Assembly (NCBI GenBank): GCA_036562265.1
Contig: DATCKS010000549.1
Span: 1 to 6,571, forward strand
Direction of reading: 5' to 3'
DNA from: DASVDK01 sp036562265 [NCBI: Thermodesulfobacteriota bacterium]
GTDB lineage: Bacteria; DASVDK01
Length of the DNA: 6,571 bases
In this document: positions 398 through 6,571 of the stretch, one piece after another
How the letters are laid out: the number at the start of each line of letters is the position of its first letter
Numbering within the stretch: the first letter of the stretch is position 1
Program-made: the position numbers and the translations under genes
The notes under the pieces: model-generated
Told to the model about the DNA's origin: nothing
Database searches by the model: none
Seen by the model: the letters and a program-made list of their open reading frames with translations, nothing else

Positions 398-398
<1 letters not shown>
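1..398 (-). CDS. atpC: F1Fo ATP synthase subunit epsilon, 3' end cut by window edge
   Basis: Epsilon is the rotor-side F1 subunit. It binds gamma and the c-ring, and its C-terminal helices can inhibit ATP hydrolysis in many bacteria. The 132 visible residues begin MATPGKLDFELVTPYRR. An N-terminal beta-sandwich covers about residues 1-85 and includes the family motif GEFGVLPGHAPLL (about 33-45). It is followed by a DPAEEID linker (86-92) and the alanine/glutamate-rich helical hairpin. The family is usually 130-140 residues, so only a few residues should be missing beyond base 1. The usual Gly-Gly-x-x-Glu-Val segment reads WGLCEV here (68-73). The ATG shares one base with the atpD stop (TGATG), and there is only a weak Shine-Dalgarno, so translation is probably coupled to atpD. 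Identity is secure from motifs and position as last gene of the F1 set; inhibitory activity is family knowledge only. Confidence 0.96.
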
Positions 399-4369
<3,971 letters not shown>

Positions 4370-4912
4370 CTAACCGTTCGCGAGCCGCTGCCTGAGCACG
4401 TCGATCTGCGTCTTGATGCTCGCGTCGAGCACGAGACCGCCGACGCGCGCGACGGCGCCGCCGATGAGCGACGGGTCGACCCGCGTCGTGAGCCGCACCC
4501 GCTTGCCCGTCCACTTCGCGAGCTGCCCCTCGACCCGGGACACGGTCGCCGGATCGGCCTGGGTGGCCATGACGAGCAGCGCCTCGACCCGGCCGGCCGC
4601 CTTGTCGACGAGGGCGCGGTACTCGCGCAGGATGTCGGGCAGCACGACGAGCTTCCGCTTGTCCACGAGGAGGCAGAGGAGGTTCACGACGAGCGGCGCG
4701 ACGCCGAGCCGGCCGGCCACCTCGCGCAGGATCCGCTTGCGCGCGTCCGCCTCGAAGACCGGGTTGGTGAGGACCATCTCGAGGTCGCGGCTCGCCGCGA
4801 GCGTGTCGGCGAAGCGCGTGAGGTCCTGCTCGAACCGCTCGAGCGCCCCCTCCTCCTGGGCGATCTCGAGGAGCGCGCGGGCGTAGCGCCGGGCGACCGT
4901 CTCGTTGGCCAT
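4370..4912 (-). CDS. atpH: F1Fo ATP synthase subunit delta
   Basis: Delta (OSCP type) sits on top of the F1 head and links the alpha N-termini to the C-termini of the b-type stalk subunits. The 180 residues are normal length. The N-terminal helical bundle begins MANETVARRYARALLEIAQE and contains the conserved NPVFEADARKRIL stretch (about 49-61). The C-terminal domain carries the family signature region GGAVARVGGLVLDASIKTQI (about 151-170). The ATG lies only 3 nt after the TAG of the b'/b ORF (TAGGCCATG), with GAGG seven bases upstream inside that ORF, so translation is very likely coupled to the stalk gene. It ends in TAG, 33 nt before atpA. It is a free-standing gene, unlike the b-delta fusion of mycobacteria. 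Confidence 0.97.
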   Translation of the reverse strand: MANETVARRYARALLEIAQEEGALERFEQDLTRFADTLAASRDLEMVLTNPVFEADARKRILREVAGRLGVAPLVVNLLCLLVDKRKLVVLPDILREYRALVDKAAGRVEALLVMATQADPATVSRVEGQLAKWTGKRVRLTTRVDPSLIGGAVARVGGLVLDASIKTQIDVLRQRLANG

Positions 4913-4915
4913 GGC

Positions 4916-5938
4916 CTAGCCTCGTCCGTCGCCGGCCGACGCCGGCAGGCGGGTGATGAAGTCCTGGACGAGACGCGCGTGGTCGGCCGGCGTGAGGTCC
5001 CGCCTGATCGCCTGCTCGGCGAGGCTCGTGGCGAGGCGCGCCGCCTCCTCGCGCAGGAGGACGCGCGCCTTGGCCGTTTCCTGCGCCGCGGTCTGCTCGG
5101 CCGCGCGCCGGATCCGCTCGGCCGCGCGCTCGGCCTCGGCGAGGATGCGCGCCCGCTCCGCCTCCGCATCGGCCCGGTACTGCGCCTTGAGCGCCTCGAT
5201 CTCCGCGTCGGCGCGCGCGAGGCGCTCGCGGTACTCGCGGGCCCGCGCCTCGGCGTCGGCCTTGAGGCGCGCCGCGTCCTCGATGGCGCGCGCGTAAGCG
5301 GCGCGCCGCTCCTCGAGCGCCGCCTTGACGCGCGGGCCGGCGAAGTAGACGAGCGCGCCGACGAGGATCGCGAAGTTGACGAGGTGGGCGACGAAGCCGC
5401 CGAAGGGGGTCTGGAAGAAGCCGCCGCCATGGCCGGCGGCGGCGGCCATCGCCTCGGTGGCGGGGAGGCCCACGGCGGCGAGCACGGCGAGCCCCGTGGA
5501 CACCGTCCGGCCGAGGATCTTCTCGGCGATCGCGCGCGCCATCTCTCGCGCCTGCGCGCCGAGCATGCTGCGTGCCTGCTCGGTGGCGGCCGCGACGTCG
5601 CGCTCGATCTCACCGATGCGGCGCGCCGCGTCCTCGCGCGCCCGCTCGAGGATGGCCTGCTCCTCGTCGCTCGCCCGCTTGCGGGCCGCGGCGGTCTCGG
5701 CGTGGGCCTCGGCGCGCGCCGCGGCGATGCGCGCCTCGTAGGCCGCGAGCGCCCGGGCCGCCTCCTCCTCGAGCGCCTTTGCCTCGTCGACGGCGCCGTG
5801 CGTCTTCGCCTCGCGCTCGTCGAGGTAGCGCAGCATGGGGCGGAAGAGCACCGCGTTGAGGTACGCCATGAGGACCAGGAACGTGACCAGGATGATGCCG
5901 CTGTTCACGATCTCGGCGCCCCAGTTGACCCCCTGCAT
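4916..5938 (-). CDS. atpF: F1Fo ATP synthase peripheral stalk: subunits b' and b in one ORF
   Basis: The peripheral stalk holds the F1 head still against the membrane while the rotor turns. This 340-residue ORF contains two complete b-type subunits in tandem. Half one (1-145, b'-like) has a membrane helix (about 9-31), the basic EREAKT turn (Arg42), an Ala/Glu/Arg-rich coiled coil and a typical b C-terminus AIAEKILGR (136-144). Half two (146-340, b-like) starts with a signal-peptide-like segment (149-165, ending TEAMA). A second membrane helix (about 181-202), ALEERR (Arg211/212), another long coiled coil and the tail SLAEQAIRRDLTPADHARLV (305-324) follow. Normally these are two genes of about 140-160 and 190-200 residues. 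No stop lies between the halves and codon use is continuous. The start is ATG at 5938 with AGGGAGG nine bases upstream. It could be a real fusion, two products through internal initiation, or an assembly artefact. Confidence 0.93.
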   Translation of the reverse strand: MQGVNWGAEIVNSGIILVTFLVLMAYLNAVLFRPMLRYLDEREAKTHGAVDEAKALEEEAARALAAYEARIAAARAEAHAETAAARKRASDEEQAILERAREDAARRIGEIERDVAAATEQARSMLGAQAREMARAIAEKILGRTVSTGLAVLAAVGLPATEAMAAAAGHGGGFFQTPFGGFVAHLVNFAILVGALVYFAGPRVKAALEERRAAYARAIEDAARLKADAEARAREYRERLARADAEIEALKAQYRADAEAERARILAEAERAAERIRRAAEQTAAQETAKARVLLREEAARLATSLAEQAIRRDLTPADHARLVQDFITRLPASAGDGRG

Positions 5939-5947
5939 ATGGTGGAA

Positions 5948-5954
5948 CCTCCCT
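5948..5954 (-). promoter_or_regulatory. Shine-Dalgarno of the b'/b gene
   Basis: AGGGAGG on the minus strand is nine bases before the ATG at 5938. It settles the start against an upstream TTG at 6163 that would add 75 low-complexity Arg/Pro-rich residues. The stop codon (TAG, 5955-5953) of the small upstream ORF overlaps this site. Confidence 0.85.
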
Positions 5955-6144
5955 AGGGCGTCACGCCGCTCGCCGGGTGCTCCCTGTGCCCGGTGCCGAG
6001 CCACCGTCCGCCCATCGGGCGCCGCGACGGCGCGCGGCACGGAGCACGCGGCGAACCGCCGGCGACGGCCGGCGCCGGGGCGAGACTGACGATCAGGAGA
6101 ATCGGAAGGGCGGTCCCGGGGACCGGCGGGCGCGGCGCGAACAT
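5953..6144 (-). CDS. Possible small secreted protein upstream of the stalk gene
   Basis: This is an ATG-to-TAG ORF of 63 codons that I do not recognise. Its N-terminus resembles a Sec signal peptide: MFAPRPPVPG with one Arg, a hydrophobic core ALPILLIVSL (12-21), then APAPAVA with a possible signal peptidase I cut after Ala28. The predicted mature part is 35 residues, basic, rich in Arg, Pro and Gly, with one Cys. GC by codon position, counted by hand, is 76/73/89 percent, the coding-like order for this genome. Against it: the only Shine-Dalgarno-like bases (GGGGG) are just three bases before the ATG, and chance ORFs of this size are common at this GC content. Its stop lies within the b'/b Shine-Dalgarno, so its translation could influence the stalk gene. 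It may equally be spurious. Confidence 0.3.
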   Translation of the reverse strand: MFAPRPPVPGTALPILLIVSLAPAPAVAGGSPRAPCRAPSRRPMGGRWLGTGHREHPASGVTP

Positions 6145-6340: not shown

Positions 6341-6571
6341 TCAGGCGTCGAGGCGCGTCGGCGCCTCCTCCACGCTCGGCAGGGCGGCGTCGCTCGGACG
6401 AGACGCGCCGCGCGAGGCGTCCGCCTCCCGAGCCCGCTCCATCTGGCACTGGCCGTCGAAGACCGAGCCTTCGTCGACGACGAGCACCGGCGTCGTGATG
6501 TTCCCGACGACGCGCGCCGGGGCGTGCATCTCGATGCGACTGCGGGCGACGATGTCGCCGACGATCGTCCC
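6341..6571 (-). CDS. Bactofilin (polymer-forming cytoskeletal protein), C-terminal part
   Basis: Bactofilins polymerise without nucleotide into filaments and act as scaffolds for cell-shape, polarity or chromosome-segregation proteins, often at the membrane. The visible 76 residues show the right-handed beta-helix repeat pattern typical of the family: GTIVGDIVARSRIEMH, then APARVVGNITTPVLVVDEG, then SVFDGQCQM, with Gly and small hydrophobic residues spaced by strand turns. A short disordered tail rich in Ala, Arg, Ser and Glu follows and ends ...APTRLDA with TGA at 6343-6341. The N-terminal part and start lie outside the window. No terminator-like hairpin with a T-run follows the stop, so read-through into the ATP synthase operon is possible. 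The specific cellular role cannot be told from this fragment. Confidence 0.9.
   Translation of the reverse strand, partial: GTIVGDIVARSRIEMHAPARVVGNITTPVLVVDEGSVFDGQCQMERAREADASRGASRPSDAALPSVEEAPTRLDA

What the first reader, a model, noticed from the sequence alone, without database searches (positions are those of the whole stretch)
4916..5938. Peripheral-stalk subunits b' and b encoded as one continuous ORF
Two complete b-type subunits, each with a membrane helix, basic turn, coiled coil and b-type C-terminus, sit in one 340-codon frame with no stop between. In bacteria with b' and b these are normally separate genes. A literal fusion is awkward: the b' C-terminus should lie near the top of F1, while the b N-terminus must be in the membrane. 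The product would need either a folded-back b' arm and an extra membrane crossing, proteolytic cleavage, or separate synthesis of b. The mycobacterial b-delta fusion shows that stalk fusions can be viable.
Basis: partly seen in the sequence, partly recalled or inferred. Interest (0 to 1): 0.7.

Follow-up and report, generated by a model that had tools for sequence, protein, structure and literature searches.

The report
ATP synthase stalk subunits made fused
Some bacteria encode the two membrane-anchored stalk subunits of their ATP synthase as one protein joined by what looks like a built-in signal peptide, which probably lets the cell cut them apart again after they are threaded into the membrane.

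Summary
Window 5938..4916 (- strand) is one 340-codon frame with two complete ATP-synthase b-type units, ahead of delta, alpha, gamma and beta. It is not an assembly slip: the same architecture occurs in 42 of the 52 genomes with a match in one class of 'Deltaproteobacteria' (63 searched) and in three genomes of another class. I read 47 distinct fused proteins. Trees need at least four changes between fused and separate; that the window's fusion is its own event is likely but not secure. In all 47, the b' end with its Arg/Lys is followed by a hydrophobic core, a small-x-Ala/Gly site, then b. Most separate b genes carry this segment as an N-terminal signal peptide. Internal starts are not conserved: 13 of 47 scanned junctions have no ATG/GTG/TTG. 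Best explanation: a polyprotein whose internal signal peptide makes the extra membrane crossing and is cut by signal peptidase I, freeing b. The hydrophobic tail left on b' must be trimmed or tolerated; that is unsolved. No cleavage was observed here.

The parts
4916..5938 (-). fused b'-b open reading frame, 340 aa, ATG to TAG
   Evidence: PF00430 two stretches; full-length one-frame homologues
5498..5938 (-). b' unit, residues 1-147: membrane helix about 8-32, then helical arm ending in IAEKILGR (residues 137-144)
   Evidence: AlphaFold helix 5-140 on a two-sequence alignment
5444..5509 (-). internal signal-peptide-like segment, residues 144-165: R144, hydrophobic core 149-158, A163-M164-A165 (overlaps the last residues of b')
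   Evidence: sequence; core and site survey of 47 fused junctions; same element at the N-terminus of most separate b genes
5501..5503 (-). in-frame internal GTG (V146), the only in-frame start codon found that would leave the whole hydrophobic core in a separate b; no Shine-Dalgarno match at usual spacing
4919..5443 (-). predicted mature b unit, residues 166-340: Gly/His-rich N-terminus, membrane helix about 178-204, helical arm
   Evidence: AlphaFold helices 200-314 and 317-330
4370..4912 (-). separate delta (OSCP) gene, so not a b-delta fusion
   Evidence: PF00213 E 3.9e-47
2816..4336 (-). alpha subunit gene
1876..2742 (-). gamma subunit gene
398..1846 (-). beta subunit gene (epsilon, recognised by eye only, follows to the window edge)

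Best explanation
The gene makes one polyprotein. The b' part inserts with its N-terminus outside and its arm in the cytoplasm. The last residues of b' (ILGR, positively charged) also serve as the start of an internal signal peptide, whose hydrophobic core crosses the membrane outward. Signal peptidase I cuts after an A-x-A site (A165 in the window), which frees the periplasmic N-terminus of b; the b membrane helix then returns the b arm to the cytoplasm. The result is one b' and one b with their normal topology, in fixed 1:1 ratio. SHOWN here: the fused frame, its recurrence, the junction pattern, and the matching signal-like segment at the start of most separate b genes. INFERRED: membrane topology, cleavage by signal peptidase I, and the benefit of fixed stoichiometry. 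UNSOLVED: the signal-peptide core stays on the b' C-terminus after such a cut, although b' should reach the top of F1, so a second trimming step (for example a RseP/SppA-type signal-peptide peptidase, named from recall) or an altered b' arm is required.
For: 47 of 47 distinct fused proteins have a hydrophobic core (10-aa mean hydropathy 1.78-3.51) soon after the b' C-terminus, followed by small-x-Ala/Gly; strict A-x-A in 31 of 47 against a shuffle mean of 11.3, sd 2.7, maximum 21 in 2000. The loose pattern alone is weak (47 of 47 against mean 42.5, maximum 47). At the chosen sites -1 is Ala in 46 of 47 and -3 is Ala in 32 of 47, close to separate b genes (96 and 69 of 110 with a site, 113 examined); my site picker favours such residues. 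Most separate b genes carry the segment as an N-terminal signal peptide. Internal starts are not conserved: in the stretch scanned (6 residues before the end of the b' domain to 14 residues before the b domain) 13 of 47 junctions hold none, 26 have starts without a 4-base Shine-Dalgarno match, 8 have a 4-5 base match. Fused and separate states change at least 4 times on well-supported branches in the alpha, alpha+beta+gamma and b'/b trees, and one clade of all fused rows is rejected (p-AU 2.5e-5). The fused genomes show no other b or b' match (E<=1e-3) or (E<=1e-10), apart from G272 with two fused copies, so this gene is their only detected source of both subunits.
Against: No cleavage data. 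The cut leaves a hydrophobic tail on b' that needs a second, unproven step. The window's own core is the second least hydrophobic of the 47 (2.44) and the window has an in-frame GTG at the place where b could start. No signal-peptide predictor was available; the site search was a simple pattern. The shuffle control keeps composition only, not relatedness: 43 of the 47 proteins come from one class. A few separate b genes show no clear A-x-A segment by eye (for example L023 and L112).
Confidence: 0.7

Rival explanations
1. b is made separately from an internal start (GTG at 5503 in the window), with its own complete signal peptide; the fused product is a by-product.
For: In-frame GTG at 5503-5501 at the border of the signal segment. 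8 of 47 fused junctions have a start with a 4-5 base Shine-Dalgarno match.
Against: No suitable ribosome site at the window's GTG, while b', delta, alpha, gamma and beta have GGAG/GAGG-type sites by eye. 13 of 47 scanned fused junctions have no start codon at all. With no stop after b', all b' must still be made as part of the long chain.
Confidence: 0.12
2. The fusion stays uncut and works as one chain: b' folds back or partly unravels so that its C-terminus returns to the membrane.
For: Nothing in sequence forbids it. By my arithmetic (not a call) an extended return strand of about 35 residues could span the height. The signal-like segment could be a permanent membrane helix.
Against: The b' end keeps the IAEKILxR-like helix end seen in separate b' genes. 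The -1 Ala and following small residues look like a cut site. AlphaFold gives one helix 5-140 for b' and a low-confidence linker, from a two-sequence alignment.
Confidence: 0.13
3. Assembly or sequencing error, or a decaying gene, in the window.
For: The window comes from an unnamed source with no whole genome held; read data cannot be seen.
Against: The same architecture and junction in 46 other distinct proteins, including contigs of 2.59, 2.75 and 5.85 Mb (G262, G267, G375).
Confidence: 0.03

Closest known systems
Separate b' and b genes of Desulfuromonadales/Geobacter and Myxococcales-titled genomes
   Same: Same two subunits, same order before delta and alpha, b mostly with an N-terminal signal peptide ending in A-x-A
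   Different: Stop and new start between them; the b signal peptide has its own Met and N-region
Mycobacterial/Gordonia b-delta fusion (Rosetta Stone delta/b; passages of PMC5709465)
   Same: A natural fusion of peripheral-stalk subunits
   Different: There delta is joined to b; here b' is joined to b and delta is separate
FbcH of Bradyrhizobium (cytochrome b and c1 made as one precursor, cut at the internal c1 signal sequence) - recalled; the 15 of 24 papers listed show none about it by title
   Same: Two subunits of one respiratory complex in one frame, joined by an internal signal peptide
   Different: Different complex; there the upstream partner can keep a C-terminal membrane segment, here b' should not
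Chloroplast CF0-I (subunit b) N-terminal processing - recalled, not searched
   Same: A b subunit whose N-terminal leader is removed
   Different: No fusion to b'

Membership tests
F-type ATP synthase b/b' subunits (PF00430) | b-type membrane helix plus long helical arm, two copies | tested here: met
   PF00430 E 5.3e-34, two stretches; PDB b chains match both halves
F-type ATP synthase b/b' subunits (PF00430) | Encoded next to the F1 genes | tested here: met
   delta, alpha, gamma, beta follow on the same strand
F-type ATP synthase b/b' subunits (PF00430) | Assembles as the peripheral stalk | not testable with these tools
   needs purified complex
Sec signal peptide / signal peptidase I substrate | Positive residue, hydrophobic core, small-x-Ala | tested here: met
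   47 of 47 junctions by a simple pattern, nearly expected by composition; strict A-x-A 31 of 47, above shuffles
Sec signal peptide / signal peptidase I substrate | Actual cleavage | not testable with these tools
   no proteomics
FbcH-type signal-peptide-joined polyprotein (family recalled) | Two subunits of one complex in a single frame joined by a signal sequence | tested here: met
   as far as the signal pattern can be trusted
FbcH-type signal-peptide-joined polyprotein (family recalled) | Mature subunits are separate chains | not testable with these tools
   no proteomics
b-delta fusion (mycobacterial type) | delta domain in the same chain as b | tested here: not met
   delta is a separate ORF, PF00213 in 4373-4912

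The most novel reading that the evidence does not exclude
An essential ATP synthase in several bacterial lineages is built from a precursor that must be cut twice: by signal peptidase I outside, and by an intramembrane signal-peptide peptidase to release the b' C-terminus. The b' tail doubles as the signal peptide's positive end. This would be a cellular counterpart of viral polyprotein processing, evolved at least three and probably four times.
Probability: 0.4. Interest if true: 0.78.

Novelty: new variant of a known kind. Interest (0 to 1): 0.6.

Why it matters
Stalk subunits b' and b have opposite needs at the point of fusion: one end belongs at the top of F1, the other in the membrane. 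A repeated, conserved fusion with a signal peptide at that point suggests that fusion is tolerated because the export machinery undoes it, and gives a direct test of how signal-peptide remnants are cleared from an essential complex. It also warns annotators that an AtpF of twice the usual length need not be an error in these groups, and suggests a natural way to fix b':b stoichiometry in the heterodimeric stalk.

Tried and rejected
Sequence error: rejected, since the architecture recurs. Methylomirabilota as the window's home: 95 genomes of the phylum of a Methylomirabilis locus gave only partial matches of 25-44% identity. G113 looked fused from its table row but its sequence has a stop; likewise G505. 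One origin of all fusions: rejected. Window plus the deltaproteobacterial class as one clade: NOT rejected with alpha alone (p-AU 0.66, where the held tree even scored higher). With alpha+beta+gamma, window nested with only the fused members of that class is disfavoured (p-AU 0.0098); I named that group after seeing a tree. A shared ancestral fusion later split in the sister group is therefore still possible. The window's place differed between trees. A first alpha tree without the second class needed only 2 changes. One tree had a wrong row for L076 (very long branch, odd make-up) and its script stopped with an error after the tree; it was replaced. A third AU test did not finish; a like one was done. 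Lipobox idea: 8 of 113 separate b N-termini match a lipobox pattern, but only 3 (L244, L249, L256) at the end of the core. Paper searches (one search returned none) listed no title or abstract start on a b'-b fusion; the lists show only part of the papers found. The stalk review PMC6131620 has no 'fusion' or 'fused' (term search only). The library holds open papers only, so absence in print is not shown.

Full report
OBSERVATION. The minus strand 5938..4916 reads ATG to TAG as 340 codons. A GGGAGG lies just upstream of the ATG. Pfam finds ATP-synt_B with two stretches; NCBIfam and PDB b/b' entries match residues about 10-148 and about 180-332. Upstream is a bactofilin, downstream on the same strand delta, alpha, gamma and beta and, by eye, epsilon. 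Long open frames are cheap here: GC is 71% and an 836-codon frame lies opposite. Homology, not length, makes the case.

RECURRENCE. A search with the fused protein gave single full-length matches without a stop in G156 (59 genomes) and G173=L076 (15 genomes). In the class of G173, 63 genomes were searched and 52 had a match: 42 have a full-length (one of them 18-329 of 329) one-frame match without stop (43 rows, G272 twice), G281 has a full-length match with one TAA, and 9 have two separate matches. Record titles of its named members (L002, L006, L076) say Deltaproteobacteria. In the phylum of G165 (377 genomes, 254 with a match at E<=1e-15, at most 5 candidates scored per genome, row list cut) three more appear: G375, G457, G415. 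All three lie in one class of 57 genomes, in which no other genome gave a full-length stop-free row (12 and 5 of the 57 had no match there). In the phylum of G002 (395 genomes, 66 at E<=1e-25, at most 5 candidates scored) the 11 full-length stop-free rows all belong to genomes of the first class. In the phylum of G004 none of the 12 of 195 genomes with a match at E<=1e-18 has one, nor do those of 58 genomes at E<=1e-3; in that of G001 (95 genomes, 82 with a match) and of G003 (3 genomes) none. From loci held, I read 47 distinct fused proteins and 117 distinct separate pairs; these were picked by similarity, so 47 to 117 is not a frequency.

INDEPENDENT ORIGINS. On an alpha tree of 85 rows the label needs 5 changes, 4 forced by well-supported branches, and 0% of 200 bootstrap trees have 1 (bootstrap not settled). 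On alpha+beta+gamma (79 rows) 4 are forced, and on b'/b itself (164 rows) 4 (long branches noted). An earlier alpha tree without the second class needed 2. One clade of all fused rows is rejected (p-AU 2.5e-5). The two lineages of the second class (L270; L271+L272) are not one clade (p-AU 5.6e-49). The window is less sure: with alpha alone, window plus the whole first class is not rejected (p-AU 0.66); with three proteins, window plus only the fused members is disfavoured (p-AU 0.0098; group named after a tree was seen). Counted as gains, three origins are well supported and a fourth likely; an old fusion shared by window and first class with a later split is the alternative.

THE JUNCTION. 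In the window the chain reads IAEKILGR-TVST-GLAVLAAVGL-PATEAMA-AAAGHGGG; L076 and L111 read IAEKILER-KLA-AFLIMLLPLM-ATTALA-ATEGG and IAEKILDR-R-LALLLPVMLT-PGVVFA-GGGGE. All 47 have Arg or Lys, then a hydrophobic core soon after the b' end, and small-x-Ala/Gly after it; strict A-x-A within ten residues is in 31 of 47 against 11.3 +- 2.7 in shuffles. The loose form is nearly expected by composition (42.5 of 47). Most separate b genes start with a like element: at sites chosen by the same rule -1 is Ala in 96 of 110 and -3 Ala in 69 (113 examined), against 46 and 32 of 47 in fused proteins. Thus the fusion seems to have joined the b' C-terminus to the core of b's signal peptide and dropped b's own Met and N-region.

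WHY NOT A SEPARATE START. The window's internal GTG lacks a Shine-Dalgarno match at normal spacing, unlike b', delta, alpha, gamma and beta by eye. Of 47 junctions, scanned from 6 residues before the end of the b' domain to 14 residues before the b domain, 13 have no ATG/GTG/TTG, 26 have starts without a match of 4 bases, 8 have 4-5 bases. My scoring is crude: it finds 4 or more bases at only 22 of 47 b' starts, against 116 of 144 separate-b starts (not deduplicated). Even with internal starts, b' could be made only as part of the long chain.

MECHANISM. b' inserts N-out/C-in; its Arg/Lys end is the positive side of the internal signal peptide; the core crosses outward; signal peptidase I cuts after A-x-A; b's membrane helix returns. 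It leaves the core on the b' C-terminus. A b' arm reaching the top of F1 cannot also sit in the membrane unless it unravels, so I expect a second trim. AlphaFold on a two-sequence alignment gives a helix 5-140, a low-confidence linker (142-144 and 146-187), then helices 200-314 and 317-330 (mean pLDDT 72.8, pTM 0.51); it does not decide the matter.

EVOLUTIONARY ROUTE. Of 117 separate pairs, 21 have b' and b in the same frame with exactly one stop between them; in L190, L194 and L195 the stop is followed directly by ATG. One substitution could fuse such genes (inference).

KNOWN KINDS. A published survey of bacterial F1Fo transcription units reports a delta/b fusion in Gordonia and Mycobacterium; the 12 of 13 passages I saw mention no b'-b fusion (PMC5709465). 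The nearest working parallel is FbcH of Bradyrhizobium, recalled; no paper on it showed in the lists.

VERDICT. Real, conserved in one class and arisen more than once; a new variant of known kinds (stalk fusion; signal-peptide-joined precursor). Cleavage itself is inference.

Noticed in passing
window 3446-5956 (+): An 836-codon open frame antisense to part of alpha, delta and b'-b; probably a by-product of 71% GC codon use.
   Followed up: no
window 6341-6571 (-): C-terminal part of a bactofilin gene (PF04519) just upstream of the ATP synthase cluster; bactofilin-like matches also lie in many of the related loci.
   Followed up: partly
L244, L249, L256 (separate b genes): The b signal peptide ends in a lipobox (LSGC or LAGC) instead of A-x-A, so b may be a lipoprotein in these genomes.
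   Followed up: partly
L162 and L172 (both genome G272): One genome holds two different fused b'-b genes.
   Followed up: no
L190, L194, L195, L197, L201: b' stop codon followed at once by an in-frame ATG of b; L197 and L201 have very short b signal segments.
   Followed up: partly
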